From NCBI GenBank assembly GCA_964019165.1, contig OZ025273.1, positions 13,260,214 to 13,324,213 on the forward strand: 64,000 nt of DNA. The letters run 5' to 3'. Of the stretch, positions 10,428 through 44,011 are shown one piece after another (within the stretch, counting starts at the first letter, position 1; the number at the start of each line of letters is the position of its first letter). This DNA comes from Mastigias papua (taxonomy: Eukaryota; Cnidaria; Scyphozoa; Rhizostomeae; Mastigiidae). A program made the translations under genes and the position numbers. The notes beneath the pieces were generated by a model. The model made no database searches. It saw nothing but the letters and a program-made list of their open reading frames with translations, and had not been told where the DNA came from.

Positions 10428-10430
10428 CTG

Positions 10431-15865: not shown

Positions 15866-18800
15866 GGTCTTCTTCTTCTTCTTCTACTGGCTTATCCCAC
15901 TCTAAGTGGGGTCACCGATGTGGATCCGCCGTCTCCAGTTTGGCCTCTCCAGGGCATCCTTCTCCATCACGCCAGCCACCCTTAAATCCTCCCTCACACA
16001 GTCCATCCAACGCCGCTTTGGCCGGCCTCTTCCCCTCGTTCCAACCACCACCCTCCTCGTCCGCAGTCCTACATATTCCTCATCCCTTCCGCAGCACATG
16101 TCCATACCATCTGAGCCTGGTCTCCCTCAACTTCCCACTCATCTCACCGACCTTCAAAGATGTTCTGATGATATCATTTCTCACTCTGTCCATCCTTGTT
16201 TTACCCACGCTGAATCGCAGCATTCTCATCTCGGCAACTTCCATTTTCTTTTCTTGCGCCTTCGTGACTGCTACTGCCTCCATGCCATAGAGCATCGCTG
16301 GTCGAACCATTGTCGTAAACATCCTCCCCTTCACCTTCCCTGGTACGTGTCGGTCGCGCATCACCCCTGTAATCCTTCTCCATGCTGCCCATCCTGCCTG
16401 AATCCTTTTAACCAACTCCTTGTCCAAACCTCCTGACTGTTGTACTGTTGACCCCAAGTACTTGAACTCCTCAGCTTTCTTAAGCCTTTCTCCTTCCATC
16501 CAAACCTCTCCTGCGGTGCCGGGCTCGCCCATGCACAAGTACTCCGTTTTCTGTCTTCTCACCTTCAGTCCTCTTTTCTCCATTTCTCTACACCACTCCT
16601 CCAGATGTTCCTCTACTTCCTCACATGAGTTGCCACAAAGAGCGACATCATCCGCGAACATCATGTCCCATGGTGCCACATTCTGGATCAATTCTGTAAG
16701 GCTGTCCATCACAATTGCAAACAGAAAGGGGCAGAGTGCTGAACCCTGGTGCAGTCCCACCTTCACATAGAAGTCTGTTGTTGTTCCTACTGCACTTCTC
16801 ACTCTCGTCTTATAGTTCTCGTACATGTCTTGGATCAGCCAGATGTACTTCTTCTCCACATCCTTCAGTTTGAGGCAGTTCCATATCTCTTGTCTTGGAA
16901 CTCTGTCATACGCCTTCTCCAAATCGATGAACACACAGTGTAGATCTTTGCTTCCTTCTCTGTACTTCTCTATCAGCTGCCTCAATGCGAAAATTGCATC
17001 TGTTGTACTTCTCCCTGGCATGAAGCCGAACTGATGGTCAGATATCGATACCCCCTCCCTCAACCTCTTCTCTATTACCCTTTTCCACATCGTCAATGTG
17101 TGTGCCATCAGGTTTATTCCTCTGCAATTTCCACAATCTAGGATATTGCCCTTGTTTTTGAAGACTGGTACCAGGATGCTATCTCTCCATTCCTCTGACA
17201 TCTTTTCCGTTTCCATTATCTCTGTGAGGATATTAACAGCGTCTCTACTCCAACTTCACCAAGCACTCTCCAAGCCTCAATCGGGATGTCATCGGGTCCT
17301 ACTGCTTTTCCCTTCTTTATTTTCCTCAGTGCTTCCAGTACTTCAGTTATTTCTATCACTGCCACTTGTCTCTCTGCCGCTGGTGGTATCACTCTCTCAA
17401 TTCTGTCGTTCCATCTCATCTTTACCTAATCCTCCTCCACCAGTACCGTGCCATCACTACTTTTGACCTATCGGCCTTGATAGACACCCTGCGACTCCTT
17501 ATTCTTCTGCTTCGCAATTCTGATTGCTTTATACATTCCGTCTTCACCCTCTGCCAGACTTTTGTAGAGGTCCTTGTGCACTTCATTCTTCGCTTTCGCC
17601 ACTGCCCTCTTGGCAGCCTTGTTTGCCAGTTTGTAACTCTCAATCGTTTCCGCATTTCTATTCAAGTCTCGCTCCTTCTTCTTTGCCTTCTTTGTCTTGA
17701 TGGACTCTTGCACTTCCTCATTCCACCACCATGTCTCTTCTTTCTTCCCTACCTTTCCTGATGTCCTGCCAAGTACTTCCACAACTGTCTCTCTTACTCC
17801 TTTACTAGCTCTCTCCCATGTGTTTGACCCCTCAGTATCCAATATCGCCTTCATCTTGTCCACAGACTTCACCCTGGGTTCTTCTAGGTTCAGTTTCCAA
17901 CACTTGGTTGTCTTGACCTTCACCGGTGTCTGCTTCCCATTGGTTTTTATGACCGTTCTGCACACCACAACTTTATGTTGTTTAGCCACCAATTCTCCTG
18001 GTAATACATAGCAATCTTGTAAATTGTGCATCTCCCTTCTTCGACAAAGGATGTAATCAACTTGCGAGTTCTTGTCACCACTGGTGTATGTTATCTTCCT
18101 TGCCAGCCTTTTCTTGGAGTACGTGTTGGTGACTGCAAGGTTGTTAACTGCTGCAAACTCCACAATCCTATCATCTTCATCATTTCTCCTTCCAACCCTA
18201 TGTTCTCCAATGTTCAATTCTACTCCCACGTTTCCTTCTCCCACATATCCATTGAAATCCGCTCCTATCCATACATTTGCCCCGTCTGCCTGTTTCTGCA
18301 TCACTTCACCCATCAGCTCCCAGAAATCGTCCTTATCTTGGTCACAGCAGCCAACTTGGAGGGCATAAGCACTGACTACATTTATTTCCACTTTGTTCAC
18401 GTTCAGTCTCATCCAGATGACTCTGTCTGACTATCTGTTCACTTTTAGTACATTCTTCTTCATTGCCGGACTCAGTAGGATTCCAACGCCGTTGTTCTTA
18501 CCATCTTCACCAACGTAGTACAGTTTGTAGCCATTCCCCATCTCTCTTGCTTTAGCGCCCTCCCACCTGGTCTCTTGTACACACAGTATGTCCATGCCTT
18601 TCCGCTCATCGTACCCACGTTCAGCGTCCCAATGACTACCTTCCTCCTTGTCTCCACTTGGCGCCTCTCTCCTCCTCAGAGCTATCTTCTTTAGCCGCAC
18701 CCGCTCTTGATACGGTAGCTATAGCCCATTTGTCACAGCATCACGGCGATCACGCTGTGCGACGCTTCTGGGGAACGCCCTAGCATGGTCTCGGTTACTT

Positions 18801-22475: not shown

Positions 22476-23286
<811 letters not shown>

Positions 23287-25412: not shown

Positions 25413-27065
25413 TCTATATACAAAGATCCCTAAAATGCAAATGAGCTTGCCTTTTGTTTACATCAAAAGGACCGTCACCCACTGGGTAATACGAACTCCT
25501 ACTAGGATATTGGTCGGAATGCCCCCAAACTTGGCCATTTGTTCCCACCTGGTCTGAATGCCACTATTACGTTTTGCTTTATTTTTGCATATTTTTCTTC
25601 ACTGAGATATTCCACTTTCTATCTGGCAATTTTTTCGGCTATGTGTGTCGTCTTTTGTTCTTCATTGTTTTCGTCCTCAACCATAACCTGCGCTCATTAC
25701 AACATGAGATCGCACTGGTAGAGGATGTTGTTGGAATTCGTGGAAAACTTCGCTCTCTCTGTGGCAGTTGAGTGGCTGTTTTCATTCCAAAGGTTTGTTG
25801 TTGCTTGCCTGTAGCTACTTCGCTGATTATCAGTGTTTTTCTTCCCTTTTAAGCTATATACAGTATGTCCATGTTCTCAGCGAGATTGTGATACTTTTGC
25901 TTGAGGGTGATATCACCATGAAAGACCTTCCGAGCAGTTCGATTCTCTCTGCTACATCATAGTGCTTTTGCCGTATGTTGTGATAAACCATGTAGAAGAT
26001 ATTTCATGTTGTATTTTGTGGAATATCGCTGTGTATTTCGCTCACTCTTTACACTTCGTTACCTGACATAGGTTAACATTCGGGAAGATTTCGATTTGGT
26101 TTGCTTTCGCATGATGTGAAGTTCCAGGTTTGTTTTGAGGAGAATAAAGTAAGCCGTAATAAAATATCTACCAGTATAGCACTGAAATTCTTTTATCTTA
26201 TTTCTTTAGTTTTCTACGTGCTTTTTAGTGCGAGGTTTTTCGTTGTGTTCTCTACTATAACTCTGAGGGGTTTGTAGGCCCCCTTATAGTTTAAACAATA
26301 AAAGGACTGTTCTTCGTCTTTCATGTCAAGTGTGATTACTCGGAAACTACGTTATACATTCGCTTACAAGATGCCCGAATATTTTGTATTTTACTTGCTA
26401 AGTTTCTTGGGTTTTAGCCATATAGCGTTTTGGTATCCCTCAACCTTTATTCTGCTGTAGTTTGTGAGGAGATATGCGAGGGGATTCCCAAGTTCATCTC
26501 ACGATTGCAGATACATTCAATCCTTTGTTTCCTAACAACTACATAATAGATATGAGACTGCAGAGAGTTCTGAAAGTTGTTTTGTAGAACCCACTGGACT
26601 GATTAATAATTGCTAAGATTTTTAGAGTGCTGTTCACTTTTAGCTTATATGCATCAGTTGGAGGAAAGGATGTCTCCATGCTAGGCCACTCTGACATTGT
26701 TTACAGATGAGATGTTGTTTGTAACTTCTACATACCTCTTTATGTTTGCAACGTAGTTACTGTAGGCTAAATCTAGACGTCTTCCAATATATTCTGTAGA
26801 TTATTGTAGTTTGATGCATCTCTTTCCGTTCCTTCTACTTGCATTATTTTGAGGAAACTATAGCGTGCATTCTCTCTAAAACTGTGAGGGGCGCCTCATA
26901 TTACTCTCAGTCCCTGTAGCTGATGCCTTCCTTACTCCCAGTACAGTTTGTAGCTTAATCCCAGTACTCTTTATTTATAACACTTTCATAGTTCTTTTCA
27001 ATATGACTGTGTCTTTGTTGAAAACAGTTGCCCTCCTTTCTCAGCTCATTTGTTATAAATGCCAT
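25413..27065 (+). mobile_element. Helitron 1, 5' part (copy B)
   Basis: The copy starts with TCTATATAC preceded by A (25412). The following ~95 bp (aaatgcaaatgagc, aaaaggaccgtcaccca) resemble published Helitron 5' ends in wording and are repeated at 32220-32315. The body is collinear with copy A (for example gatatcaccatgaaagac matching 84 onward). It is non-coding. It stops at ataaatGCCAT, where a 4-kb insertion begins, and resumes at 31037 after the same GCCAT. Confidence 0.75.
27061..27065. repeat. Target-site duplication GCCAT (left)
   Basis: Repeated at 31037-31041. An uninterrupted Helitron copy (near 46495) has a single GCCAT at the equivalent point. Confidence 0.85.
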
Positions 27066-27504
27066 TGTTGAGAATAATTCTCCAATCTCGCTGGTACAAA
27101 GATTGTAGAACCAAGTACAGAAGTTTCACTCCAAGAAATACAACTCAGTTACATTTTCTCTAATTCATAACTATTCTATCACTCTACTTCTCTCTCTCTA
27201 CATCTCTCTAAATTTGCTAAATCAATTAGGTTTTTTATACATGAAGCTAGGAAATTACGTACGAATAGTTTAAAATTACTAACCAATGACATTACACTAG
27301 GAAGATAATGCTACGTAAATAGTTGTTTTGATAAACATTAATCATAACTTTCCCAGGTTAGTAATTTCCCTACGTTATTCTTACACTATGGTTATGCGTG
27401 TGAGAACGAGACTATTACGTCTTTACATCATACAAACACGAAGAAAATATATTACGTTAGCAAACTATATCGGATAGTTAACCTTTATCTACGAGACACA
27501 GCTA
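27066..27504 (+). mobile_element. Copia-like solo LTR candidate, left part
   Basis: Begins TGTTGAGAA; the matching end at 31036 reads TTCCCAACA. TG...CA termini with a short inverted repeat and a 5-bp duplication are the hallmarks of an LTR, and TGTTG...CAACA is typical of Ty1/copia. No gag or pol is present between the ends, so a solo LTR of about 500 bp, later split by the Tc1-like element, is the simplest reading. Superfamily is inferred. Confidence 0.5.
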
Positions 27505-27781
27505 CAATCAATGCCAAAAGTCTTGGAACACTTACTGTATTTTTTGATCTGGCTGGTGAGCGTTCCCCTCTCCCCTTCAAAACAATGTTGATTTATACAG
27601 GTTTTATACACAGTAAGTAAGTCAAATTGCATTCACACAACTGTCAGCTAACCCAACCGTTAATTCAACATTGTTCTGGGGGGTAGGGGGGGCCTAATCC
27701 GTTGTGCTTCACCGGAATCTCATAATTGTCACATAAAATGCTGCGGTCAAAGGGTGTTCCAAGGACTTTTGGCAGTGATTG
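27505..27781 (+). repeat. 277-bp terminal segment, left copy (MITE-like)
   Basis: Has its own terminal inverted repeats (CAATCAATGCCAAAAGTC...GACTTTTGGCAGTGATTG). Essentially identical to 30697-30973; only one substitution was noticed (cttgg versus ctttg). Confidence 0.95.
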
Positions 27782-28401
27782 TCTGAGACAGATACTGCCC
27801 ATGCAATAGTATGACAATAAAATATATATGTATCATAGGGTTTTCCATGGTCCTGATTTCAATGGAAATATTTCCAAATCGATATCTCTATTGGTTTTGG
27901 CAGGAGCCATGGTGGGGTACGTGAAATGGTAGCATTTTCACTGTGAGAGAAAAACTATAAATGTTGTAACAGAACATCACGTTCTATGTCAAATTTTCTG
28001 GTATGGATTGAAGAGTAGGTTGTATGCTATAAAAAGAGAACACTGCTACTGGAATGCCATTCAGTGCACTTCGCTGCACCAAAAACGAACTACAGCAAAG
28101 ACGTCGAATCTTCGAGCGATACACCACTTTTTGCCCCTGCAGAAGCACCCATCTCTTTCGTAAAAGCCTCTGTTATACAAGATTGTGACATTGAAACGAT
28201 GCAGGTACGATGGGGCTTCTTCTATTTCAAATAGTAGTTCCAGCAACAGGAGCAGAAAATGCCTCCCCATGCGGTCATTGTTTCACAAAGATGTTGTTGC
28301 AATAGTGGGCATAGGCACATCACTTTTGTAAACACTATTGTTCCTCCGTAGCGTTGGCAAGCTACGGTGTCATTGTAATGGTAGCGAAAGTGCAATTTGG
28401 C

Positions 28402-28782
28402 CACGGTTTACCATTTCTATTTTCCCTTCTATCCTTTACTGGTAGTAGGTACCCAAGAACGGAAAATGCTAAAAGTGGTACATCGATATGTACCTTCATG
28501 AGATGACGCGAAAATACATGTCTATTACTCGTACCTTAGTGAAATCTGGGAAATAGCCACGGTTTACCATTTTACGCAGATAAACATGAATAGGATCAAA
28601 GTCAGATTTCAAAAAATGGTAAACCGTGCAGTTTTTCTCGTTTTTCTCAGAAAATCTAGAGAAGATTTATTCACAAATATAGACAGCTGTAGTTTGTGGT
28701 CATGTACCACTTTTTCCAAACTTGCAGCAATATCGAAGAATTCATTCGTATTTTATAAGGAAAACTAGAATGGTAAACCGTG
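28402..28782. repeat. Nested inverted repeats of CACGGTTTACCATT
   Basis: Forward copies lie at 28402 and 28558, reverse copies end at 28628 and 28782. This gives an outer pair 381 bp apart and an inner pair 71 bp apart. The outer pair extends about 25 bp with mismatches, as MITE termini would. No clean target duplication was seen. Confidence 0.7.
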
Positions 28783-29131
28783 ATGGTAAACTGTTGGAAT
28801 ATACCATTGGAGACGGAATCCAATTCAATGCGACTTTGGGCTGAATTGAGTTTAATGCTTTATAGGTATAGGGCCGCAGTTTTTTTAAGCAAAAGTGTGG
28901 CATTGGGTCGTTTAAGGCCATATTAGAGGAAAATTTTTCACTTATCTACATAATTCCATCGTCTCCTTATACAAGTCAAAGGGCGACTGGTATTCATTGA
29001 GGACACCTTATTGAGGACACCTTGGGAGACCATAGACAAGGGAAAATTCGCTGTAATACTGCATAATTCATATGGTTTAAATACTAATGAACAAGCTGTA
29101 AGATATAATATTGCAAGTAATTTGAATGAAT

Positions 29132-30211
29132 TCAGTATTTAGTTCTATATCCACCAGACTTTACAATTCTCTGTAGACGAAGGGTCATTGTCTCTACAGT
29201 GCGGTCAATAATAGATGCATCATACTGGAGAAGTGTACTCAAGACCCTTTGTTTAAATGATTCAAAGTCCTCCCTGATAATTTTTCGCTTCAATGCATCC
29301 TCCCTAAGACTACGCTTAATATTATGAAAAATATTTTCTATGGGATTTAGGTCTGGTGATCTAGCTGGTATTTCTACAAGTTCAGCACCAATTTCCTGCA
29401 AGGCATCTTTCGCTACCATACTTCTTTGGCTTGGGTCATTATCCATAACAAGCAGTAATTTCTCCTTGCGTTTTAGCACTGCACAATCCATTAAGACCTT
29501 TTGTAGAGTTCCTTGCACAAATTTGGCAAACCAAGGTCCGTTCATCTTCTCATATTCTTCAGCAAGAACCACTCCTGTTGAATGTGAGATGCCCACCAAA
29601 AGATGCAACGAACGTCCCCCTGGTAAATTTTTCGATCCTTTGCTCGTATATTTCAGCCCTTCATTGCTTTTCCTCCAGACTTTTCCACCAGCACATAACG
29701 CATCTTCATATGGCTTTTGATTGTGCCTAAAAGAGACACCGTCCAAATACAGAAGAACCTCGTCTGTCCAAAAGTGTGTGTTATAGTTTTTCAGAGCTGT
29801 TTTTGCATACCGCACTCTGCGTTGCCTGTCATCTGATGAAAGTATACCTTTTCTTCTGGATCTCAAAAAATGATACCCAGCATCATTTAATGTACGTACA
29901 AGAGTTCTGTAGCTGATGCTTGTGATTTCACACTCTTTTGCGACGTCAACGATTCTGACGTTCGGGTTCTCATCTCTCATTTTGCGGAAAGTTCGAATAA
30001 ATCTGCCCTTGACTTTCTTCGTCATCAATGTTGGTCGACCCGTTCTCTTCTTCGTACTTTGGCTAGAAAAGCCCTCCCGACATATCCTCACAGTACTTGA
30101 TGGTGAGATACTACAGCGTCGAGCAATCTCCCTGTACGACAAGGAGGACTCTCGTCGAAGGTAGCAGATATACGCTCTGGCTTTGGCACTAATTCTTACG
30201 TGAAATACCAT
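29132..30211 (-). CDS. Tc1-like transposase, intact (359 aa)
   Basis: Cut-and-paste transposase of the Tc1/mariner superfamily. It binds the terminal repeats and inserts the element at TA. The ORF starts MVFHVRISAKARAYICYLRR and has no stop or frameshift. Residues ~15-60 form a paired-type helix-turn-helix (LSYREIARRCSISPSS), followed by the GRP-type motif GRPTLMTKK. The catalytic triad is visible: Asp in LYLDGVSF, Asp in LLVMDNDPSQ, and Glu in SPDLNPIEN, with 34 residues between the last two, so a canonical DD34E. The length is close to the family's usual ~340-350 residues. It lies centrally between the two 277-bp segments and is the best candidate for a still-active enzyme in the window. 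Confidence 0.93.
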   Translation of the reverse strand: MVFHVRISAKARAYICYLRRESSLSYREIARRCSISPSSTVRICREGFSSQSTKKRTGRPTLMTKKVKGRFIRTFRKMRDENPNVRIVDVAKECEITSISYRTLVRTLNDAGYHFLRSRRKGILSSDDRQRRVRYAKTALKNYNTHFWTDEVLLYLDGVSFRHNQKPYEDALCAGGKVWRKSNEGLKYTSKGSKNLPGGRSLHLLVGISHSTGVVLAEEYEKMNGPWFAKFVQGTLQKVLMDCAVLKRKEKLLLVMDNDPSQRSMVAKDALQEIGAELVEIPARSPDLNPIENIFHNIKRSLREDALKRKIIREDFESFKQRVLSTLLQYDASIIDRTVETMTLRLQRIVKSGGYRTKY

Positions 30212-30696
30212 TTTGTCTCAGTTATTCTGATGCGTGGCGTAGATGAGTATTAGATATATGACACCTTTCCTTAGATTCCCCTTTTTACCACTTAGACTTT
30301 TCCATTCGCCATATTGCACGGACAGGAAATTAGTGGGTTTGAATAGAAACTGTATGCCATATGAGTAAAATTTTTCATGTATTGAAGAGTTTCCTGCTGC
30401 CAGTATGTGTTTACTATGTATTAATCACTTGTTTTTATTGCACGAGTGTTCGATACTGACAAGAACGGGGACAAAGAAAGACAATTATTTGTGACTAAGA
30501 GACAACTGCGACTATAAGAATAATACACCTAAATTAGCAACTCATGAGGTAGAACTCTATGAACCCCTTTAATTCTACACCTTCCCCCCAATATATGTAA
30601 TTTTAGATGGCACCATTGAACTCAGCACTATGGAAAACCCCCACCCCCCACCAACTATTTCCTGTACACCTCAACGTTTTACAGATTTTCCTCAGA

Positions 30697-30973
30697 CAAT
30701 CAATGCCAAAAGTCTTTGAACACTTACTGTATTTTTTGATCTGGCTGGTGAGCGTTCCCCTCTCCCCTTCAAAACAATGTTGATTTATACAGGTTTTATA
30801 CACAGTAAGTAAGTCAAATTGCATTCACACAACTGTCAGCTAACCCAACCGTTAATTCAACATTGTTCTGGGGGGTAGGGGGGGCCTAATCCGTTGTGCT
30901 TCACCGGAATCTCATAATTGTCACATAAAATGCTGCGGTCAAAGGGTGTTCCAAGGACTTTTGGCAGTGATTG
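30697..30973 (+). repeat. 277-bp terminal segment, right copy (MITE-like)
   Basis: Direct repeat of 27505-27781. Its outer end (tgattg|TA) and the outer end of the left copy (TA|caatca) form the only TA duplications. Confidence 0.95.
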
Positions 30974-30975
30974 TA

Positions 30976-31036
30976 TGTGTGCTTCTATGTATAGAAGGGA
31001 CTGCGATAGCCCTGCTGGATGGTGGTTTTCCCAACA
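30976..31036 (+). mobile_element. Copia-like solo LTR candidate, right end
   Basis: Last ~60 bp of the LTR candidate, ending TTTTCCCAACA, followed by the duplicated GCCAT. Confidence 0.5.
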
Positions 31037-32219
31037 GCCATTACTGAATTCTATTGATCTGTCTGTACACGATGATATAGTTTTCTGGGATTACTTACTA
31101 CTAGATAGTATGATCATTCCTATTGTGTAGACTTGATCTCTTGAGCCCTTACTATCACCTCCCGTACCAAATTCTGTTATTGTTCGAAACCCCGGGTTGA
31201 TGATTTATATTTTATAACATGTTTCCTATACATAGCAGTATTCTTTTATTTTTATGACGTAAGAATATGGAGTCATCTGAGGTATTAGAATTCTATACAG
31301 CATAATTTAATGGCTAAATAAGGCTAATATACCAGTTAACAAAGGATTACAAGATGTGACCACATTACAGGTTTATAGTTCAGACATAATCGTGTAACAC
31401 TTTGGGCAAGATTTGCAATCACCCCACAGATCATAGTAGTAGTCATACCTGTCATTTGATAGACTATACTGTATATGTTATACACTGTTACAATTATACC
31501 ATTAAATTTTACAAGACTCTCTACATTAGAATTGAAGTATGCAGGAGACAATACATAACGTTGTTCATTAATGCCTCACTGTAAAGAACATTTTGAAGGA
31601 TTATGTGCTTATTTCATATACAGTAGACTAGCTTAGTACCGATAGCCCACTAAACGCGGGCTCCCCTTACTCAATTCAAAAGTTGCAGATTAGCATTGGA
31701 AAGACTAACGCAGTGCCCCCATGAAAGTTGCATGGTCTGCATTTTCGATGAGCAACGATCAGAAAGGTCGCATAGGATCACAAGAAGGTGACGTCATGGG
31801 CCTCTGCGATGGATCACGTGACCTTCGGTAGTGCATTGTGCAAATCCAAGAAAATTGTGAGAAAAAATTGTGCACAAAATGGTGGGATACCTGCGCTAGG
31901 CTACGGGGTCTCTTGACTTTCTTCCTGTCCCTTTACTGCCCCGTAGCCTAGCGCAGGTATCCGACCATTTTGTGCACAATTTTTTCTCACAATTTTCTTG
32001 GATTTGCACAATGCACTACCGAAGGTCACGTGATCCATCACAGAGGCCCATGACGTCACCTTCTTGTGATCCTATGCGACCTTTCTGATCGTTGCTCATC
32101 GAAAATGCAGACCATGCAACTTTCATGGGGGCACTGCGTTAATCTTTCCAATGCTAATCTGCAACTTTTGAACTGAGTAAGGGGAGCCCGCGTCTAGCGG
32201 GCTATCGGTACTAAGCTAG
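31037..32219 (+). mobile_element. Helitron 1, 3' part with palindromic terminus
   Basis: Resumes collinearity with the other copies at GCCATtactgaattctattg and ends at CTAG (32216-32219). Within the last 35 bp, stem AGCCCGC (32185-32191) pairs with GCGGGCT (32197-32203) around a 5-nt loop, 12 nt before CTAG. This is a textbook Helitron 3' end. The terminal ~594 bp (31627-32220) are a palindrome with arms of about 282 bp. Confidence 0.8.
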
Positions 32220-32221
32220 TC
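32216..32221 (+). other. Helitron head-to-tail junction CTAG|TC
   Basis: The 3' end CTAG of Helitron 1 is followed with no spacer by TCACTATATACTAAGATCCC, the 5' end of a second Helitron (compare TCTATATACAAAGATCCC at 25413). The pair is flanked by A at 25412 and T at 47419. Confidence 0.75.
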
Positions 32222-32315
32222 ACTATATACTAAGATCCCAGAAATGCAAATGAGCTCACCTATTGTTTACATCAAAAGGACCGTCACCCAATGGGTAATA
32301 CGAACTCCTCCTAGC
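32220..32315 (+). mobile_element. Helitron 2, 5' end
   Basis: About 95 bp matching 25413-25507 with a few substitutions, up to cgaactcct.ctag. After that the sequence switches to LINE ORF1. Helitron sequence resumes at about 46035. Confidence 0.75.
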
Positions 32316-32879
32316 ATCTTAACATCAATAAGCAAAATGACAGCTGTAGCAACATCAGAAAAATTAAAGGTATTCTTGAATCGAACACTCCAAGGAGGAT
32401 CTTGCTTCGTGGAGACTCACACGTCCGCCGTGTTGGTGAAACTAACTCCCTCTCCAACTGCATTCTGCCAAGAGGAATCGGGGGGTTAAAAAGTGACCAA
32501 CTGGTTTCCAAGCACAGGGGTACAATAAACAGTGAGCTAGAAAAGACAGACGAAGTAATAATTCATGTTGGAAGCAATGATATTAGCAAAGGAGTAAAGC
32601 AAGATGCAGTAACAAATGACATCGATTGCGCTTGTGGAAAATTAAGGGAGATAAACCCGAATATTGAGATAGCCATTTCATCAAGTTTTCTTCAAAAATA
32701 TGATACCACGAAGAACCTTCGGATCATCGAAACGAATGCGGCACTGGAGCGATACTGCCTCTTGAACTGGTTTGAGTTTCTTAACAATTCCAACATCACT
32801 TTTAAGGATCTGGACAAATGGGGCATGCATCTTACCCTGGAAGGTTATCGCTTATTTGCTAGCAATGTAAATGCCCGTC
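32316..32879 (+). pseudogene. LINE ORF1 fragment with SGNH-hydrolase-like (esterase) domain
   Basis: Open frame from about 32315 with no start of its own, so it is cut at its 5' side. The domain shows the GDS block (ILLRGDSHVRRV), the GxND block (IIHVGSNDIS) and a C-terminal His block (GMHLTLEGYRLFASN). Together these are the SGNH/GDSL fold found in ORF1 of CR1/L2-type LINEs. The frame is broken at 32880 by the BEL element and the LINE resumes at 44484. Confidence 0.7.
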
Positions 32880-33222
32880 TGTGGGGAACTCTGAGCAGGC
32901 GCGCACATATGCTAGTCATTTTCTTTTTCTTGCAGCTTAATACTTAATCCTTCCGTGGTAGACAGGTTACCCCTGCCCACAGCAAACAACTTAATTATAC
33001 ACATCCAATATAATATTTGTCTTACTTATGATTGGTTATGATTTACCATTGTCTTTGAGAATTATATTAGCTAGCACGTGATATTAGATTTAGTGAGGAC
33101 AGTGGAGTGTAAGAATACGGATAGATCGAAATCGACAAATTAAATCTCTTTTCGTGAATTACTCCGCGATTGATAAAGCACCTGAATCAGCGTAGAACAG
33201 AGTGGAAACGCAAGATCCCACA
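32880..33222 (+). repeat. BEL element 5' LTR
   Basis: 343 bp, TGTGGG...CCCACA inverted termini. It is preceded by CCGTC (32875-32879) and matched by the 3' LTR at 44137-44478 with roughly a dozen differences by eye. A primer-binding-site-like ttggtccaccgaaccgagg follows directly. Confidence 0.93.
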
Positions 33223-33381: not shown

Positions 33382-33850
33382 TGCAGCAATTACATTTTTA
33401 GTTACTTTATCTTCCACTCCATTCATTCATTCATTGCGTGTTTTTCTACAACTCATTGCCATCACTTCCTCTACGCTAACACTAAACTAACATCACACTA
33501 ACATTCTATTGCGTCATAACACCTTGCCCTTTTGTTAGGCCTATTTTTAAACTAACTTTCCCTCAACACATTGTCTAGCCTTTCCTTCCCTACACCGATT
33601 TTTGTTATTCCATCTTTATACGTAATTCCGGGGAGCAAATAGATATACCAAATCATAATTTGTAAATAGTTCAGTTGAATTTCTATCTTGGCGAAGAAAC
33701 ACACAAAAACACAATTCGCGTGTAGCTTATTGTCTCCAGTCTACAAATACCAGAGGAAAGAAAAGAGAAATACAGTGGTGAGACCGTTCAATTAGTATAG
33801 TTTAAAACTTTATTAGTAATTCAAAAATTGAAACGAAGAGAATTACTAAA
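33382..33850 (+). repeat. Gypsy element 5' LTR
   Basis: 469 bp, the same length as the 3' LTR (38128-38596), with about ten differences by eye. The termini tg(c/t)agcaatt and aattactaaa form an imperfect inverted repeat. It is followed by a primer-binding site beginning TGGTGACCG, matching the 3' end of tRNA-Trp as known for the CsRn1 clade. Confidence 0.93.
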
Positions 33851-33981
33851 GTGGTGACCGAGCCTACGAACTACTACGCAAGTTTCATTGTTTATTCGCT
33901 GATTGCTTTGATTGTCTATTACTGTTTGTATTCGTACTTGCCATTTTACACAACCGTTTTCATTGCCATTTCCACATCATC

Positions 33982-34909
33982 ATGCTTGATCCACCGACCA
34001 CCGCTGGTTCATCCTCTGCTGATCCTATCGTCCTCCCACAACCTCACGCTGTCCATGCCGTCTCTCTGAAATTACCACCTTTTTGGCCTACCGATCCTGT
34101 AGTCTGGTTTGCCCAAGTTGAAGCACAGTTTCTCACTCGTGGTATTACCTCTCAATCCACGCAATTTTTGTATGTCATTGCCTCGTTACAACCCGAAATT
34201 GCCCAAGAAATTCGAGACCTTTTGATTTCTCCCCCAACTGACACTCCCTACGATGGTTTGAAAGCTACACTCATTCGCCGTACTTCCGCTTCTGAACAAA
34301 AACGCCTACCTCAATTGCTCATCGCCGAAGAACTCGGAGACCGCCAGCCCTCTCAACTCCTTCGCAAAATGCGTCAGCTCCTTGGTGACAATGTCCTCGA
34401 GGATGGTATTTTAAGGCAATTATTTTTGCAACGTTTACCTCAGAACATTCAGCTTATTCTTGCTTCGACACCTCAGACTGTCTCCCTTGAAGACCTTTCT
34501 CTGCTTGCTGCCAAAATCCTTGAAGTTGCCTCGCCTCATCCGTCTGTTGCTGCTCTTACTCCAAGTATCCCACCACCAACCATGCACGACCATAACCAAC
34601 AAATCGCTGCTTTGCAAGGCCAGATTAATCAGTTAACTGCCCAACTTCAGGCCCTCTCTACTCACCTTGATTCACGTGATCAGCCTCGTTTTCATGGACG
34701 TAGTCGCTCTCGTTCTTGCTTTTCTAGGCCTTCGTTCTCCCATTTCACCTAGCCGCACTCGTCTGTCTCCATACTGTTGGTATCATGAGCTTTTTGGCCC
34801 TGCCGCCCACAAATGCATCCCACCTGGTACTTTTCTCTCTGACGCATATACTCCAGTCTCTCACACTGCCACTCCACAACAGTCGGAAAACTTCACCGCC
34901 AGCCACTAG
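33982..34909 (+). pseudogene. Gypsy gag with CHCC-type zinc motif, frameshifted
   Basis: The main frame runs 33982-34752 from MLDPPTTAGSSSADPIVL. The capsid-like core is PPFWPTDPVVWFAQVEAQF, then SEQKRLPQLLIAEELGDRQP, followed by a basic Arg/Ser-rich tail. A frameshift near 34735 puts the zinc motif in the next frame as CWYHELFGPAAHKCIPPG, where the expected fourth ligand Cys is replaced by Gly. The frame returns to the first one near 34880 before the protease. Coding capacity is therefore damaged, but only by point and indel changes. Confidence 0.85.
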
Positions 34910-34959
34910 CGGCGACCTGTCCAGCTGGCTCTTCCATCACCAGTCGCCTATTTTACATC

Positions 34960-36200
34960 ACCGACCGTACTACTGGTACTCGTTTCCTCGTTGATACCGG
35001 CGCTGATGTCAGTGTTCTTCCCCCTTCTGCTGCTGGAAAACGTAAACCTGCCTCCATGATTCTCCAGGCTGTCAATAAATCTGCCATCTCTACTTTTGGT
35101 GAAAAATCCATGACCTTGGATATCGGACTTCGCCGTAGTTTCAGATGGATATTCATAAGTGCTGACCTTCCCCTCCCTATTCTGGGAGCAGATTTTCTCG
35201 CCCATTTCAGACTTCAAGTTGATGTTCGCCATCGCAAGCTCATTGACACTACTACCGGCCTCAGTCTTAATGGTATTCAGTCTACTACAGTTTCACCACG
35301 ACCTGTTTTTCATTTCCCTGCTTCTACTCCTTACACAGATTTATTGCGCAAATTTCCGCACATTTCCCGTCCATGCTACAATGAATCGTCTGTTAAACAT
35401 TCCGTCACTCATCACATTCGCACTACCGGACCTTCTGTCTTCTGCCGTCCTCACCGCCTTGCTCCTGATCGTCTCAAGATTGCTAAATCTGAATTTGATC
35501 ACATGCTCCAGCTTTGCATCATTTGTGCTTCTGACAGTTCTTGGTCTTCTCCACTCCATATGGTCCCCAAACCTACTCCTGGTGATTATCGTGCTTTGAA
35601 CAAAGTCACTCTGCCCGACCGTTATCCCATACCACACATTCATGACCTTTCCTCTTCACTCCATGGCAAATCCATTTTCTCCAAGATTGATCTTGTCCGT
35701 GCATATCATCAGATTCCTGTCCACCCAGATGATGTTCCTAAGACCGCCATTTGCACACCTTTTGGCTTGTTCGAGTTTCTGCGCATGCCCTTTGGTCTTC
35801 GTAATGCTGCTCAAACTTTTCAATGTTTCATTGATGAAGTTCTCCGTGGCCTCGATTTTGTGTATGTGTACATCGACGATGTCCTGATTGCCAGTTCTTC
35901 AGAAGCTGAGCACCTGGCACACCTGAATATCCTTTTCAATCGTCTTTCAGAATATGGTATTGTCATCAATCCTTCGAAGTGCATTTTTGGTGCTGCGTCT
36001 CTTGAGTTTTTAGGCCACCAGATTTCAGTTCATGGTATCTCTCCTCTTCCGCAAAAAAGTGCAAGCCATTCAGGACTTTCCTGCTCCATTTTCCTTACGC
36101 AAGCTACGCGAATTCCTTGGATTGGTTAACTTCTATTGTCGTTTCATTCCACACTGCGCCTCACTTGTCCAACCACTCACTGATCTCCTGTCACCAAAGT
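34960..36200 (+). pseudogene. Gypsy protease and reverse transcriptase
   Basis: Protease core [13 protein letters not shown] at about 34984 (upstream of the first Met of the open frame). RT blocks: [64 protein letters not shown] and the catalytic box [11 protein letters not shown] near 35870. A frameshift at about 36056 follows ISPLPQK, and a stop sits at about 36200 (after LTDLLSPK). The rest of pol continues at 36236. All catalytic residues are kept. Confidence 0.9.
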
Positions 36201-36235
36201 GAACCAGTACCGACTCATTTCATCTCCCCGAGGGT

Positions 36236-36736
36236 GCACTATCTGCCTTTCAAGATGTGAAATCTGCTCTTGCCAAAGCCACTCTCCTCACTCATCCTGA
36301 TCCGTCTGCACCATATTGCCTTATGGTTGATGCTTCTAATGTCGCAGTGGGTGGAGTTCTTCAACAGTGCGCCAATCACACCTGGCATCCTATTTCCTTT
36401 TTCTCCAAGCGTTTGCAGCCTGCTGAAACCAAATATAGTACTTTCAGTCGTGAGTTACTCTCTATTTACCTCTCCAGCCGCCATTTTCGCCATTTCTTGG
36501 AAGGACGTGAATTTTATGTTCTCACCGATCACAAGCCGCTGACACGTGCTCTCTCTTCTTCGTCATCACGTTATTCTCCACGGGAAACACGCCACCTTGA
36601 TTTCATCTCCCAGTTTACTTCTGACATTCGACATGTTCACGGAAAAGACAACCCTGTTGCTGATGCTCTTTCTCGCATGGATATCAATACGTACACTCAA
36701 TGCTCCTTTCGATCCTACACCTCCTCTCAATTATAA
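36236..36736 (+). pseudogene. Gypsy RNase H
   Basis: Continues pol after the stop near 36200. It shows CLMVDASNVAVGGVLQQ with the first catalytic Asp, STFSRELLSIYLSSRHF with the Glu, [11 protein letters not shown], and the C-terminal [16 protein letters not shown] with the last Asp. A frame change near 36690 leads into integrase. Confidence 0.88.
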
Positions 36737-38009
36737 CCTCATCGCACAGGCCCAACTGAATGACTCAGATCTATCTCAACTCAAGTTCACATCCTTGCAC
36801 CTCCAAGCTCTGCCCTTGCCATTTTCCACCGGAACCATACTCTGCGATATGACCACTGCCTCGTCACGCCCATATATTCCTGCAACTTTCCGCCGTCTTG
36901 TTTTTGACCAATTCCATAACCCTTCGCATCCTGGAATCCGTGCCACCCAACGCCTCATCACAGAACGATTTGTCTGGCCCGGCATCAATACAGATATCCG
37001 CCAATGGACCAAATCATGCCTTCATTGCCATTGCGCCAAAGTACAACGTCACACTGTTACTCCCCTTGGAACTTTCACTACTCCAGATGCCCGTTTTGAT
37101 CACATTCACCTCGATATTGTCGGTCCTCTTCCTCCATCTCAAGGCTGTCGTTATGTGCTCACTTGCATTGATCGTTTCACCAGGTGGCCCAAAGCCATAC
37201 CTATCTCAGACATCACTGCCGAAACTGTTGCTCGCGCTTTTCTTACGCATTGGATATCTACCTTTGGTGTCCCATCCACTGTTACAACTGACCGCGGTAC
37301 GCAATTTGAATCATCCCTCTTCACAGCCCTTACAAACCTTCTCGGAACCAAACGGATACACACAACTGCATATCACCCATGTGCCAATGGAATGGTTGAG
37401 CGTTTCCACCGTCAATTGAAAGCCTGTTTCAAAGCCTCCTCCGACTCCTCCAAGTGGACACAACTTCTCCCTCTCATACTTCTCAGTCTTCGTACCACAT
37501 TCAAGCAAGATCTACAATGCACTCCTGCCCAGTTTGTCTATGGCACTACTCTTCGTTTACCAGGACAGTTCTTTATTCCCTCTCCTGCCACCATGCCACT
37601 CGACCCTACACTCTATGCCGATCGTTTAGCATCCTATATGCACCAGCTTCGACCAGTTCCACCACGCCTGCAATCTCCACCATCACATGTACCTCCCAAT
37701 CTTTCTACGTGCACTCACGTTTTTGTTCGCCATGATGCCATCCGCAAACCTCTTGATCCGCCTTATGATGGACCCTATCGCATTCTTCATCGCCATCCAA
37801 AACACTTCCTCCTGGATATTCATGGTAAGCAGATTTCCGTCACGCTCGATCGTCTGAAGCCAGCTCATCTTGATTCTGCTTTTGTCAACCGTCCTCCTGC
37901 CACCCTTCACGATTCACCTACTTCGGACACTGTTCCACCAAAGCCCTTGCTACGTACCACTCGCTCAGGAAGAAGAGTACATTTTCCGGACCGATATGGG
38001 ACTGTTTGA
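36690..38009 (+). CDS. Gypsy integrase, open to its natural stop
   Basis: It inserts the reverse-transcribed element into DNA. The zinc-binding HHCC domain is seen as [14 protein letters not shown] then CLHCHCAK. The catalytic DDE residues lie in [18 protein letters not shown] and [11 protein letters not shown], which form an unbroken frame. A C-terminal tail rich in Pro and Arg follows ([13 protein letters not shown], stop at 38009). The open frame extends upstream to 36546, overlapping RNase H in another frame, but the true integrase reading joins near 36690. No inactivating change was seen in this part. Confidence 0.9.
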
Positions 38010-38600: not shown

Positions 38601-39552
38601 TATCGATTATAGGAGACTGAGCTTACTTCATACGGATTTAAAACAGAAAGCAGTAACCTTAAAGAGTCTTGACGAAGAAATCGCTGAGTTAACGATTGAG
38701 CACTGTGATGAGGACACTTGTGTGAAGGAAGCCGAAGAGTCTATTGATTATAAAGAGAAGGTAACTTATGCCATTTTAACCCTAGAAGATACCTTCAAGG
38801 TAAAAAGCGGATCGCTTTCTTCGGGTGGATCACAAGCCTCAGCAGAAGGATCAATAGCCTCAGTAGAAGACTCACAAGCCGCGATAGAGGGATCACTTGC
38901 CTCAGGAGAATCAGAATGAGTGGATCGAAGTGCCTCCAAAGAGAGTTTAATTTCGTTTACCTCTAGTACTGAACAGCCTTATCAAACGCCATCCAGGAGG
39001 GTGAAATTGCCAAAACTTGAATTGCGGATGTTCAGCGGTAAAATTGAGGACTGGCCTGAGTTTTGGGACAGTTTTTGTAGTGCCATTCACCTGGACCAGC
39101 AGTTAGCCAAGGTAGATAAATTCAAATATCTTCGCAGCTATTTGGAGGGGCCAGCAAGAAGTGTCATAAAAGGGTTTTCTCTCACAGAAGTCGACTATGA
39201 TGAAGCAGTTGCCTTGCTGAGAAAACGATACGAAAGACCAGATGTGATGCGGATAGCTCATATCAATGAGCTGATAAACCTTGCGCACGTGTTCAACGAC
39301 AAAAACGTACAGCGGCTTCGTTCTCTTCATGATGAAATCGAGACCCATTTTCGCGCAATGGAGGCCCAAGGTGTTGACAAGCAGTCTTATTCAAGTGTTG
39401 TAGTTCCTATGGTCATGTCAAAAATTCCGAAATCGATTCGATACAATATGATAAGATTCAACGAAGAACATATGGACTGGCTGCTAGACGATTTTCTTAG
39501 TGCGTTAGAGAAAGAGTTGAGAGTACTGGAAGGCCATGTACCCATATTATAG
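38601..39552 (+). pseudogene. BEL gag (main part)
   Basis: Continues the gag start at 33278. A coiled-coil-like N-terminal part (KSLDEEIAELTIEHCDED) is followed by a short imperfect Ser/Gly/Ala repeat (GSLSSGGSQASAEGSIASVE). Then comes an in-frame TGA at 38917 and the DUF1759-type core LPKLELRMFSGKIEDWPEF...FKYLRSYLEGPARSVIKGF. The frame stops at 39552. It is damaged by the gypsy insertion and one nonsense codon. Confidence 0.85.
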
Positions 39553-41140
39553 GTGGTGAAACAACAGAAATTCGAGCAGCAGAACAATCAACACAGGAAC
39601 AGCAGTTTAATGAAGCAAGCAGAAACAGCCTCAGCATTGTTGACAGGACAACGAGAGACAGAAAAAATCTGCACGTATTGTTTGAAGACTCAGTTCAGAG
39701 AACTGTGACGTGGTAAAGGACATAATTGATCGCAGGAATGTTCTTTTACGTAAGGCTAAATGTTTTTCATGTTTGAAATCGGGGCATAGAGCATTTCAAT
39801 GCAAATCACGCGTTGCTTGTAGAGATTGTAAGATGGTAGGTCATCATGTTTCAAGTTGCCCCTGCCTTTGCGCCCCCATAGCTGCGCACCCAGCACGGCC
39901 TAAGCCTAGCGCGTCTACTCCTAGCTCTGTGGCACCCTTGAACCATAGCGCGACCTCTTGGGTTGGAAGTGCTGACTCCTCTGAAGGGAAGGTAGCCTTG
40001 CAAACGGCCTTGGCAGTGAGTAATGGCAAAAAAGAGAGTAGGGTGAGAGTTTTGTTTGACACAGGAAGCCATAAATCATTTATCACTGCTGAGGCCGTGT
40101 GCAAGCTTGGTTTGAGGCCAGTGAGGAGAGAAGAACTTGGCATTAAAGTGTTTGGAAGCAAAGAAGCTGTCAGTGAGATGAGAGATGTAGTGGAATCTTC
40201 TTTAAGTGCCTTGAATGATAGATCAGGTGTAAAAATTGAAGCTTTTGTTGTGAAAGACATTTCTTCAATTCCTAATGTCCATATAGATCGAGTTAAAAAG
40301 AATTTTTTGCACCTGAGTAATGTTTGGTTTGCAGATGTTTGTAGGGATGATGAAATGTTAGAAGTGGACTGTCTGGTTGGATCTGACTGGCTTTGGTCTT
40401 TCCAAGAAGGGGAAGTTATACGAGGGAGGCCGAAAGAACCTGTTGCAGTGAGAACTAGCTTAGGCTGGGTTTTGTCTGGACCTCTCAAAGGTAAGATTCT
40501 TGATTCTAATACTGTTTGTAGTGTGCACATTTGTCTTGATTCCAGGGTTCATGAAAGGCAAGAACTTGAGATGCAATTGCACAATCTTTGGGATTTAGAT
40601 AGCATTGGTATTAGAGAACCTGATAAGGTCCATGAAAGTGTTCTTGATGCCATTACATTTACAGGCGATAGATACTCAGTTGGCCTACCATGGAAAGTCT
40701 GCCATAAACCCCTGCCTTCCAATTATAATTTAAGTCTGTTGCGTCTGAAAAATCAGGTAAAAAAGTTAAGGCACACTCCTGAAAGTTTTGAGAAGTATAA
40801 TGATATAATCTCTCAACAGGTACAGGATGGTATTATCGAGCAGGTTTCTGAAATGGAACCTGCTGGTAAAACTCATTACCTCCCACACAGGGCAGTGGTA
40901 AGAGAAAATGTAGAGAGTACTAAAGTTAGAATAGTATATGATGCTTCTTGCAAGGAAAGGACATCAGGAGTGTCCTTGAATGACTGCCTACATGTAGGTC
41001 CATCTCTTACGCCAATGATATTTGATGTTCTCCTAAGATTTAGAGTTAGCCCCCTTGCAATAGTGAGTGATATTGAAAAGGCTTTCCTGAATATTGGAAT
41101 TCATCCAGAGGACAGAGATTCCCTTAGATTTTTTGGGTAG
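39553..41140 (+). pseudogene. BEL zinc knuckles, protease and N-terminal reverse transcriptase
   Basis: A frameshift near 39705 leads into a 476-codon frame (39710-41140). Two CCHC knuckles are visible (CFSCLKSGHRAFQC, CRDCKMVGHHVSSC), then the aspartic protease VRVLFDTGSHKSFI. The RT thumb/finger region follows (LPHRAVVRENVESTKVRIVY, SDIEKAFLNIGIHPEDRD). The stop at 41140 comes with a frameshift, and the RT continues at 41141-42084. Confidence 0.88.
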
Positions 41141-42232
41141 ACAATATTTATTAAGAAAACCCAGAAGTTGTCATATATAAATTCCGAAGGGACTGTTTTG
41201 GATGTAATGCCTCACCATTCCTTTTAGACTGTGTTCTTAGACATCATATACAGAGATATAAAAAGGAGGACCCTGAGTTTGTGCATAAATTAGTGGGAGG
41301 ATTCTTCGTTGATGACCTAGTAACAGGTAGCAAAGATATACAAGATGCCTTAGACCTTTATGAGAAAGCTAAGACAAGGCTTAAGGCTGGTAGATTCACC
41401 TTGAGAAAGTGGAAAACGAACAAGGCTGAAGTAGCCAAGGAAATTGCTTACAGAGAGTGTGAATTGGGAAGAACTGAAAGCATGAAAGAAGAGAAACAAT
41501 CCTATGCCAAAGAAACCCTTAGCCCAATTGTTAATGAGGGGGGCAAGCCCAAAGTGCTTGGTATTATTTGGGACAACAAGGAAGACACCTTAAAAGTTAA
41601 CATGCGGAATGTGGGCAAGGAAATTGATAGCAACCCCATAGCCACAAAAAGAGGTATCCTAAGCACTCTAGCTTCAGTTTTTGACCCTCATGGATTAGTA
41701 AGCCCAGTGTCAGTGTCAGCAAAGATTCTCTTCCAGGAGCTTTGTGTTGAGAACTTAGGCTGGGATGATCCCCTCCCTGCAGATAAGCTTGTGAGATGGA
41801 AGGCATGGCTTCAAGACTTGCAGGACACTGGCATTATATCAGTTCCTAGGTGTATTATTGATGAAACTCAAGGTGATCTTTTGAGCACCCAGCTTCATGG
41901 ATTTGCTGATGCCAGCAAAAAGGCATATTGTGCAATGGCATTTATTGTTTTTAAGACAACCACAGGAACATATGTCAAGCTTTTAACAGCCAAAACACGG
42001 GTGGCACCTCTTAAACTACTTAGCATACCTCGGCTAGAACTTATGTCTGCCAGAATTTTAGCCAACTTAATGAAACAGTTTTAGAAGCCTTAGACAAGCA
42101 GATAAAGGTAGATTTGGTGAAATACTGGTTAAACAGCAAGACAGCTCTATTTTGGCTTCAAAATAATGGGGAATGGAAGGAGTTTATAAGACACAGAGTT
42201 AATGAAATCTTGAGCCGCACCAGGAAAGAAGA
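41141..42232 (+). pseudogene. BEL reverse transcriptase C-terminal part and RNase H
   Basis: The RT catalytic box appears as GGFFVDDLVTGSKD near 41300 (FVDD, usual for BEL/Pao). It is followed by FTLRKWKTNK, KVLGIIWDNKEDTL and LASVFDPHGLVSPV, the latter a BEL/Pao hallmark. RNase H starts with LHGFADASKKAYCAMAF. The frame breaks near 42084 and continues in another frame to the integrase ORF (WSHVPGAE near 42235). Confidence 0.88.
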
Positions 42233-44011
42233 TTGGAGCCATGTGCCAGGAGCAGAAATCCAGCAGACCTGGGCTCAAGGGGTGTATTAGCCAGCCTCTT
42301 GAAAAACAGTACACTATGGTGGGAAGGGCCCAGCTGGCTGAAGGAAGATGAAGGCAACTGGCCAAGAAAGTTTCTTATTGAAGATTCGTCAGAAGTGGAA
42401 GATGAACGGAAAAAGACAAATGTGATGATGGCAGTGCAAAGTGAAAAAAGGGGTGTGAGTAAGGTTATAGAGATAGGAAGGTATGGAAGCCTAGTCAGAT
42501 TACTAAGAGTTACAGCATTTGTCCTCAGATTTATTAAGAACTTAAAGGGGAAGAAAGCAAAGAGAGACATTGATATTGGTAGACTTAAAGTTGAAGAGAT
42601 TGAACATGCAGAGAAGGTCTGGATAGAAGATGCACAAGACACAATAAAGGAGAGAGCTGATTTTGAAAGGTTATCTAGACAACTAGGTATAGTGAACAAT
42701 GAGAATGGATTGTTGGTGTGTCAAGGAAGACTTGCTAATTCAGACTTAGATATTCAAGCTAAGTACCCCATAATATTACCTAGAGAAAGCCCTCTTACAG
42801 AGCTTATCATCAAGGATTGCCATCACAAAGTTCACCACAATAAGCTTAGATGCACACTCGCAGAGCTTAGATCCAGATTTTGGGTGCTGCATGGTAGACA
42901 AAAGGTGAAGCATGTCATCAGTAAATGCCAAGTATGTAGGAAATTAGAAGGACCCTTTTTCAGAACTCCAGCAGCAGCTCCACTCCCAACCTTTAGAGTT
43001 ACTGAATCCAAACCCTTTACTATTGTGGGAATTGACTTTGCAGGCCCACTGTTTGTCAAAGGTGAGGATGGAAAAATGAGGAAGACATACATTGCCTTAT
43101 TTACATGTGGTGCTACTAGGGCCATACATTTGGAACTTGTGCAGGACTTAAGTACGTCTACCTTTCTGAATTGTTTTAGGAAGTTCTGTGCAAGAAGAGG
43201 TACTCATAGAATTGCCAATTCTGATAATGCCAAAACCTTTATGGCTGCAGCAAAATTGTTGACAAAGTTGTCCCAGGATAAAGCATTTGGCACTTATTTG
43301 GAATCCCACAGGATAATTTGGAAGTTCAACTTACCCAGGGCCTCCTGGTGGGGAGGGTACTTTGAGCGAATGGTTGGGTGTGTTAAGCGCTGCCTCAGGA
43401 AGATTCTTGGTATGGCAAAATTGAGCCAAGATGAGCTTAGTACAGTATTGGTGGAAGTTGAAAACACTTTGAATACAAGACTCCTTACCTATTTATATGA
43501 TGAGTTAGGAGATATATTGACACCTTCTCATTTGTTGTGTGGTTTCAGAATGTCAAATCTTTCAGAAAATATAAAGTCTGACATTGATTGCAGTGAAGAT
43601 CACAATAAACTGGCAAGGAGGTTTTTCTACTTGACTAATAGGCTTTCTCATTTTTGGAATAGGTGGAGAAAGGAGTACCTTACTGACCTAAGAGAATATC
43701 ATAAGGAGAACAACAGCAAGGTTGATTCTGTTGCAGAGGGTGACTTGGTTCTTATATATGAGGACAAAGTTAAGCGTGGGTTATGGAAAATGGGAATTAT
43801 TGAAAACCTCATTGTTGGAAAGGATGGTAAGACACGTGGAACAACTGTACGTAAGGCTGGTAAGAGTAAACCTGAACTTATCACAAGGCCCTTACAGAAG
43901 CTTGTTCCATTAGAGATTTCCTGTGATAGAGATCATTACAAAAAAGTGAGGAAGTTTGAAGGTTTAGAAGAAAAGGGAGTAATGAGGAATAAAGGTGAAA
44001 AAAGGAGGTGA
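42233..44011 (+). CDS. BEL RNase H end and integrase (592 codons)
   Basis: The start at 42233 is only where the open frame begins; in the element it is the continuation of pol. It reads NPADLGSRGV then WWEGPSWL, as in BEL/Pao elements. The integrase zinc region is HHKVHHNKLRCTLAELRSRF then CQVCRK. The catalytic core has Asp in IVGIDFAGPL, Asp in RIANSDNAKTF and Glu in WWGGYFERMVG. A C-terminal DUF5641-like domain follows (LSHFWNRWRKEYL, VAEGDLVLIYEDK, LWKMGIIENL). The frame runs without interruption to the stop at 44011, just before the polypurine tract and 3' LTR. Confidence 0.92.
   Translation: MEPCARSRNPADLGSRGVLASLLKNSTLWWEGPSWLKEDEGNWPRKFLIEDSSEVEDERKKTNVMMAVQSEKRGVSKVIEIGRYGSLVRLLRVTAFVLRFIKNLKGKKAKRDIDIGRLKVEEIEHAEKVWIEDAQDTIKERADFERLSRQLGIVNNENGLLVCQGRLANSDLDIQAKYPIILPRESPLTELIIKDCHHKVHHNKLRCTLAELRSRFWVLHGRQKVKHVISKCQVCRKLEGPFFRTPAAAPLPTFRVTESKPFTIVGIDFAGPLFVKGEDGKMRKTYIALFTCGATRAIHLELVQDLSTSTFLNCFRKFCARRGTHRIANSDNAKTFMAAAKLLTKLSQDKAFGTYLESHRIIWKFNLPRASWWGGYFERMVGCVKRCLRKILGMAKLSQDELSTVLVEVENTLNTRLLTYLYDELGDILTPSHLLCGFRMSNLSENIKSDIDCSEDHNKLARRFFYLTNRLSHFWNRWRKEYLTDLREYHKENNSKVDSVAEGDLVLIYEDKVKRGLWKMGIIENLIVGKDGKTRGTTVRKAGKSKPELITRPLQKLVPLEISCDRDHYKKVRKFEGLEEKGVMRNKGEKRR

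What the first reader, a model, noticed from the sequence alone, without database searches (positions are those of the whole stretch)
27505..30973. Tc1-like element built like a composite transposon
Two complete, nearly identical 277-bp MITE copies, each with its own inverted termini, lie in direct orientation around an intact Tc1-like transposase gene. TA duplications exist only at the outermost ends, so the 3.5-kb unit seems to have moved as one. Bacterial IS composites work this way; for Tc1/mariner elements it is unusual. It could be mistaken for an LTR element.
Basis: partly seen in the sequence, partly recalled or inferred. Interest (0 to 1): 0.75.

Follow-up and report, generated by a model that had tools for sequence, protein, structure and literature searches.

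The report
Tc1 transposon with replication-initiator gene and LTR-like ends
A cut-and-paste jumping gene in an animal genome belongs to a family whose full-length members also carry a virus-like gene for starting circular DNA copying, and it sits in chromosomes as single units or head-to-tail chains bounded by two near-identical 277-base repeats, which suggests that it is copied as a circle before it jumps.

Summary
Let M = the 277-bp palindromic repeat, C = the 2.9-kb centre. TA-M-C-M-TA is the usual form of a Tc1-like (DD34E) family in this 347-Mb genome: close relatives of the transposase lie in 40 places, 28 with one copy and 12 with 2 to 8 in head-to-tail arrays. All 23 elements read at both outer ends have M there and a 2-bp direct repeat outside (19 TA, 4 TT/AA). 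The window copy has an empty-site counterpart: an LTR with a single TA. The two Ms of an element share private mutations, as LTRs do (0.175 differences against 2.32 between elements), so both come from one template. In sister families (61-92% transposase identity) M has diverged with the element, and two units read carry an intact Rep gene: geminivirus-like HUH nuclease plus AAV-like SF3 helicase. The window copy has lost most of Rep. Some inner Ms are missing, leaving C(A/T)G, a Tc1-type scar. Best model: a circle with one M, copied by Rep into chains; the transposase cuts at M ends and inserts [M-C]n-M. Architecture is shown; circles and rolling-circle copying are inferred. No paper found describes it; nearest is a Rep-plus-transposase element in truffle.

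The parts
27061..27065 (.). GCCAT, left copy of the 5-bp duplication outside the host LTR
   Evidence: read; paralogues C and A lack the insert
27066..27504 (.). left part of the host LTR (begins TGTTG), ending with the duplicated TA at 27503-27504
   Evidence: uninterrupted relative L076
27505..27781 (+). M, left copy: 277-bp palindromic module with inverted termini of about 28 bp and an inner inverted motif (CCCCTCTCCCC..AACAATGTTG)
27782..30696 (.). C, the centre (TCTGAG...CTCAGA), including 28-bp inverted motifs 27838-27865 / 30613-30640 about 56 bp from each inner junction
28042..28306 (+). remnant of the 3' end of a Rep gene (SF3 helicase C-terminus; reading frame broken); 1,080 bp are absent here relative to the C14 sister element. 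Right limit approximate
   Evidence: no Pfam hit for the 71-aa frame
29132..30211 (-). Tc1-like transposase, 359 aa plus stop, intact; DD34E spacing counted by hand on the translation
30697..30973 (+). M, right copy, direct orientation, 1 mismatch to the left copy
30974..31036 (.). right part of the host LTR, starting with the duplicated TA and ending CAACA; GCCAT follows at 31037-31041

Best explanation
It is a Rep-deleted copy of a Tc1/IS630-type transposon family that uses two enzymes. Full members carry a DD34E transposase and a HUH-SF3 Rep between two directly repeated palindromic modules M. Proposed cycle: (1) an extrachromosomal circle holds one M and one C; (2) Rep, in cis or trans, copies it by rolling-circle replication into head-to-tail chains ...M-C-M-C-M...; (3) the transposase recognises the inverted termini of M and cuts out any stretch that begins with the left end of one M and ends with the right end of the same or a later M, that is [M-C]n-M with n = 0 (a solo M), 1 (the window copy), 2, 3 or more; (4) it inserts the stretch with a 2-bp duplication of TA, rarely TT/AA. 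M can also be cut out of a chain, leaving C-C(A/T)G-C. Shown: M-C-M form, arrays, 2-bp repeats outside, shared M mutations, Rep gene, scars. Inferred: the circle, the rolling-circle step, Rep acting in trans, and M or its flank as origin.
Against: No circle, read or expression was seen. Unequal crossing-over plus gene conversion could also make arrays and equalise Ms. The arrays of the window's own subfamily are of the Rep-deleted type in the units read, so Rep would have to act in trans. M-less junctions, including two 5-unit arrays in which all four inner Ms are gone and both outer Ms kept, are not predicted simply. E42 and E44 have M pairs that differ (about 96%; 95.6% plus a gap), as expected for old copies but not proof. 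Shared M mutations in the core set rest on 17 variable columns. The four TT/AA repeats have no empty site. Array sizes depend on the assembly.
Confidence: 0.66

Rival explanations
1. Recombination only. M-C-M moves by cut and paste as a fixed composite; unequal exchange between the direct Ms makes arrays and solo Ms at the insertion site, and gene conversion keeps the two Ms alike. Rep plays no part in the array form.
For: Array units are nearly identical within a place (0-1 substitutions), as local expansion would give; direct repeats of 277 bp can recombine; the Rep-deleted subfamily forms arrays.
Against: Both Ms share private mutations at unlinked single-copy places (10 single elements: pair mean 0.3 against 2.39), which needs conversion again and again; identical C units occur at different n in different contigs; Rep is intact in two relatives.
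Confidence: 0.24
2. Parvovirus-like rolling-hairpin replicon: M acts as a terminal hairpin resolved by Rep; concatemers are integrated by the transposase.
For: Rep helicase closest to AAV Rep; M is a long palindrome; a single M between units, flanked by inverted sequence, resembles an AAV head-to-tail junction (recalled).
Against: In all elements read the Ms point the same way; hairpin transfer should flip about half of them.
Confidence: 0.08
3. Classical IS-like composite: two independent MITE insertions flank a Tc1 gene.
For: Architecture in the window alone.
Against: No TA at the inner junctions; the same junctions at the other places read; Ms co-vary by element and by sister family.
Confidence: 0.01
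4. Assembly artefact or local duplication.
For: Arrays can be mis-sized in assemblies.
Against: 23 elements with distinct flanks and 2-bp repeats outside; empty site at the window's position.
Confidence: 0.01

Closest known systems
Tc1/mariner (IS630) transposons such as Sleeping Beauty
   Same: DDE_3 transposase with DD34E spacing; short inverted termini; TA duplication; 3-nt C(A/T)G scar (the Sleeping Beauty scar is recalled)
   Different: Element ends are two direct copies of a whole 277-bp module; units lie in arrays; two relatives read encode an intact Rep; 4 of 23 elements have TT/AA outside
Geminivirus-like transposon of Tuber melanosporum (Liu et al. 2011, PMC3198968; passages read)
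   Same: Rep-like gene and transposase genes in one repeated element with inverted termini
   Different: There 37-bp termini, no obvious target duplication, interrupted genes; no direct terminal modules or arrays in the passages read, and the term tandem does not occur in the text
Helitrons and IS91 (rolling-circle transposons)
   Same: HUH enzyme, rolling-circle copying (here only proposed), tandem products
   Different: Helitrons have no TIRs or target duplication and no DDE transposase (recalled); here a Tc1 transposase defines the ends
AAV and other parvoviruses
   Same: Rep with HUH and SF3 domains; head-to-tail chains with one palindrome between units (recalled)
   Different: No capsid gene recognised in the sister unit read (six frames of 100 aa or more, of which only transposase and Rep were identified); Ms direct, not flipped; a DDE transposase for integration
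LTR retrotransposons
   Same: Direct terminal repeats that share mutations; solo repeats
   Different: M has its own inverted termini and occurs alone between TAs; no reverse transcriptase recognised between the Ms; 2-bp duplication
Teratorn (piggyBac fused to a viral module; only search listings with the start of the abstract seen)
   Same: DDE transposase joined to a viral replication module
   Different: 180 kb; here 3.2-5 kb with a Rep

Membership tests
Tc1/mariner (IS630) | DDE transposase of Tc1 type | tested here: met
   DDE_3 2.3e-14; HTH_Tnp_Tc3_2 28.9 bits, under its cut-off of 31.5; the one PDB sequence matched is Sleeping Beauty, 1.1e-8; DD34E counted by hand
Tc1/mariner (IS630) | TA target duplication | tested here: met
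   Empty site for the window copy; TA on both sides in 19 of 23, TT/AA in 4 of 23
Tc1/mariner (IS630) | Single cargo between two terminal inverted repeats | tested here: not met
   The inverted termini belong to M, and M is present whole at each end
IS-type composite transposon | Two independently evolving flanking elements | tested here: not met
   Ms co-vary within elements
LTR retrotransposon | Reverse transcriptase between the repeats | tested here: not met
   The only long frame of the window unit is the transposase; transposase and Rep are the long frames of the L045 unit
LTR retrotransposon | Terminal direct repeats that are identical at insertion | tested here: met
   Inferred from shared mutations:
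HUH-SF3 Rep (CRESS/parvovirus type), relatives of the window element only | HUH nuclease with HxH and catalytic Tyr | tested here: met
HUH-SF3 Rep (CRESS/parvovirus type), relatives of the window element only | SF3 helicase | tested here: met
HUH-SF3 Rep (CRESS/parvovirus type), relatives of the window element only | Nicks an origin and drives rolling-circle copying | not testable with these tools
   needs an enzyme assay
Helitron | No TIR, no target duplication | tested here: not met

The most novel reading that the evidence does not exclude
A new class of eukaryotic transposon with a two-enzyme cycle: a virus-like Rep multiplies the element as a circle (copy step) and a Tc1 transposase pastes monomers or whole head-to-tail chains (paste step), which regenerates identical LTR-like terminal modules at every cycle and sheds the module alone as a MITE.
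Probability: 0.5. Interest if true: 0.93.

Novelty: new variant of a known kind. Interest (0 to 1): 0.85.

Why it matters
Cut-and-paste Tc1 elements are thought to gain copies only indirectly. A family that adds a Rep would have a true replication step and would explain tandem arrays, satellite-like growth and MITE bursts (the module alone) with one mechanism. It would also be a DDE-based route by which ssDNA-virus-like replication genes live in animal genomes, and the shared-mutation signature gives an easy test in any genome.

Tried and rejected
IS composite by chance: rejected by co-varying Ms. C as an element with its own ends: the 6-bp TCTGAG/CTCAGA and the 28-bp inner motifs are symmetrical, but no C without M and with a duplication of its own was found among the places read. 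Transposase search of phage records gave nothing; viral contigs gave no relative; both answers warn that records of this genome may be left out. A degenerate 20-mer in genome contigs gave 11 hits, about what chance allows by my estimate. Of the 100 places listed of 241 outer right ends (ends, not elements) I chose and read ten: 6 are solo M with TA on both sides, but only one of these (L062, 98.9%) is of the window's M type, the other five being about 70% like it; 3 are M followed by a C-like start; 1 is a partial M. They had TA on the right by choice. Footprint word: C22:6366516 has no M or C nearby and was left out of the tally; C22:5840594 belongs to a related family (CTG). L070 and L072 were placed so that they missed the junction. 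Foldseek and VIA-align rows show fold, not function.

Not answered: the Rep search of the whole genome and the count of inner M ends (the search machine was busy at every try), so the number of Rep copies is not known. The organism was not identified.

Full report
WHAT IS IN THE WINDOW. M occurs at 27505-27781 and 30697-30973, direct, one mismatch apart. The transposase is intact, 359 aa, minus strand. TA stands only outside. The inner junctions are TCTGAG on the left and CTCAGA on the right, a mirror image, and a 28-bp inverted motif lies about 56 bp further in on each side.

HOST SITE. The element sits in an LTR of about 500 bp (TGTTG...CAACA, GCCAT on both sides), itself absent from two paralogous segments of the window near 1.2 kb and 46.5 kb. 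The LTR junction word without the element occurs 27 times within 2 mismatches, 1 of them exact; the word read backwards gave 0 forward and 2 reverse. Of four such places read, L076 matches the whole left LTR part (94.6%), directly followed by the right part (94.8%), with a single TA at the insertion point; L075, L077 and L078 show the same junction but are partial or interrupted further out. Four pairs of these words lie 5.97-6.03 kb apart, as the two LTRs of a full retrotransposon would. So the 3,469 bp entered as one unit.

GENOME-WIDE. The window lies in a 347-Mb assembly. M with 9 bp of C gives 53 rows, 40 of them matches over the length (644 candidates, 40 scored), many exactly 3192 bp apart. 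The transposase gives 113 scored matches of 809 candidates. Those at 96% identity or more, 72 copies of which 3 are partial, fall in 40 places: 28 single, 5 double, 3 triple, 2 of five, 1 of seven, 1 of eight (counts of scored copies, so lower bounds). I read 20 stretches, 14, 20, 1, 4 empty-site loci and 6. They give 23 elements with both outer ends read, 18 core-family and 5 sisters; M stands at both ends in all 23, and a 2-bp direct repeat outside in all 23, TA in 19 and TT or AA in 4. Most of the core places had been found by searching for M, the sisters and the C1b and C12 arrays through the transposase or its neighbourhood. E42's left M has mutated first bases, so its TA was read by lining up. 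The outer right end with TA occurs 241 times, reversed control 0. Of ten such places that I chose and read, 6 are M alone between two TAs; one of these is 98.9% identical to the window's M, five are about 70%.

LTR-LIKE BEHAVIOUR. In 49 M copies from 21 elements or arrays, 17 columns vary. Within an element Ms differ by 0.175 on average (40 pairs, maximum 2), between elements by 2.32 (1136 pairs, 140 of them identical); none of 10000 label shuffles came as low, the lowest being 1.40. In ten single M-C-M elements the pair mean is 0.3 against 2.39, and 5' copies are no nearer to other 5' copies than to other 3' copies. The window's Ms share two changes seen in no other copy of the set. In sisters: E40 and E41 have 100% identical Ms, 92% like the window's; E42 about 96%; E43 identical outside a 38-bp gap, about 69% like the window's; E44 95.6% over its aligned part, with a gap. 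A composite that merely moves as a block would let its two ends drift apart through the family's history; this one does not. Some shared template must renew both.

ARRAYS. Units within an array differ by 0 or 1 substitutions in 2915. Identical units (0 substitutions) sit in different contigs with different n: an eight-unit array on C3 equals a single on C22; a triple on C1 equals a double on C18; a double on C1 equals singles on C19 and C17. A relative with 61% transposase identity gives 27 scored copies on nine further contigs, spaced by about 5047 bp or twice that. Of these I read C53 (22,792 bp) at both ends, and both lie inside the array (L045, L059); that all nine are unplaced pure arrays is a guess from their small coordinates.

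FOOTPRINTS. Some junctions in arrays lack M and read CTCAGA-CAG-TCTGAG. M ends with CAA; a 3-nt overhang of that kind, trimmed at its mismatched tips, should leave C(A/T)G. I wrote the search word with A or T before the answer came: 15 sites, reversed control 0. By element orientation 9 are CAG (4 on C1, 3 on C3, 2 on C12) and 4 CTG (2 on C3, 2 on C12); six of the 13 are read in full context, the rest assigned by strand. One more CTG lies in a related family and one site has no element near it. This shows that the transposase, or an enzyme that cuts like it, recognises M even where it is not flanked by TA. It does not tell how the two five-unit arrays without any inner M arose.

MECHANISM. The simplest scheme that covers all of this: a circle with one M, copied head to tail with the help of Rep, from which the transposase takes any stretch between the left end of one M and the right end of the same or a later M. 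The arrangement, 2-bp repeats, shared mutations and scars are shown; circle, replication and trans-action of Rep are inferred. The main rival is recombination and gene conversion at the insertion sites.

LITERATURE. Ten searches listed no paper that, by title and start of abstract, deals with a Tc1-type element with Rep or with direct M-like ends. In PMC6668415 a term search found no mention of Tc1 or IS630 (passages). The nearest is PMC3198968 (abstract and passages): a truffle element with Rep-like and transposase genes; the superfamily of that transposase is not named in what I read. Subscription papers and preprints are not in the library, so prior description cannot be excluded.

Noticed in passing
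window 1-2416, 26000-33000, 46032-47403: Three paralogous segments of a host repeat, two with long fold-back structures (31626-31908/31939-32221, 98% complementary; 1822-1984/2254-2416, 97%).
   Followed up: partly
window 59583-59611: A lone related terminus followed by TA (3 mismatches to the M end), apparently a truncated member of a related family.
   Followed up: no
L081/L029 (C1c), L031, L032, L040/L058 (E40): Four elements with TT/TT or AA/AA instead of TA/TA at the outer ends: probably a 2-bp duplication of a non-TA target; no empty site was sought.
   Followed up: partly
L045, L059; contigs C32, C53, C54, C57, C58, C60, C74, C78, C82: Contigs carrying a 5047-bp Rep-plus-transposase unit in tandem; both ends of C53 lie inside the array. 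Either a large array or extrachromosomal chains.
   Followed up: partly
window 9682-10429: Tandem copies of about 183 bp plus an inverted copy.
   Followed up: no
window 3176-5756, 16080-18430, 33850-38009, 38920-44011: Retroelement open frames (Gypsy-like, non-LTR and BEL/Pao-like by eye, not scanned); tRNA-Ser(GGA) at 22695-22767 minus.
   Followed up: no
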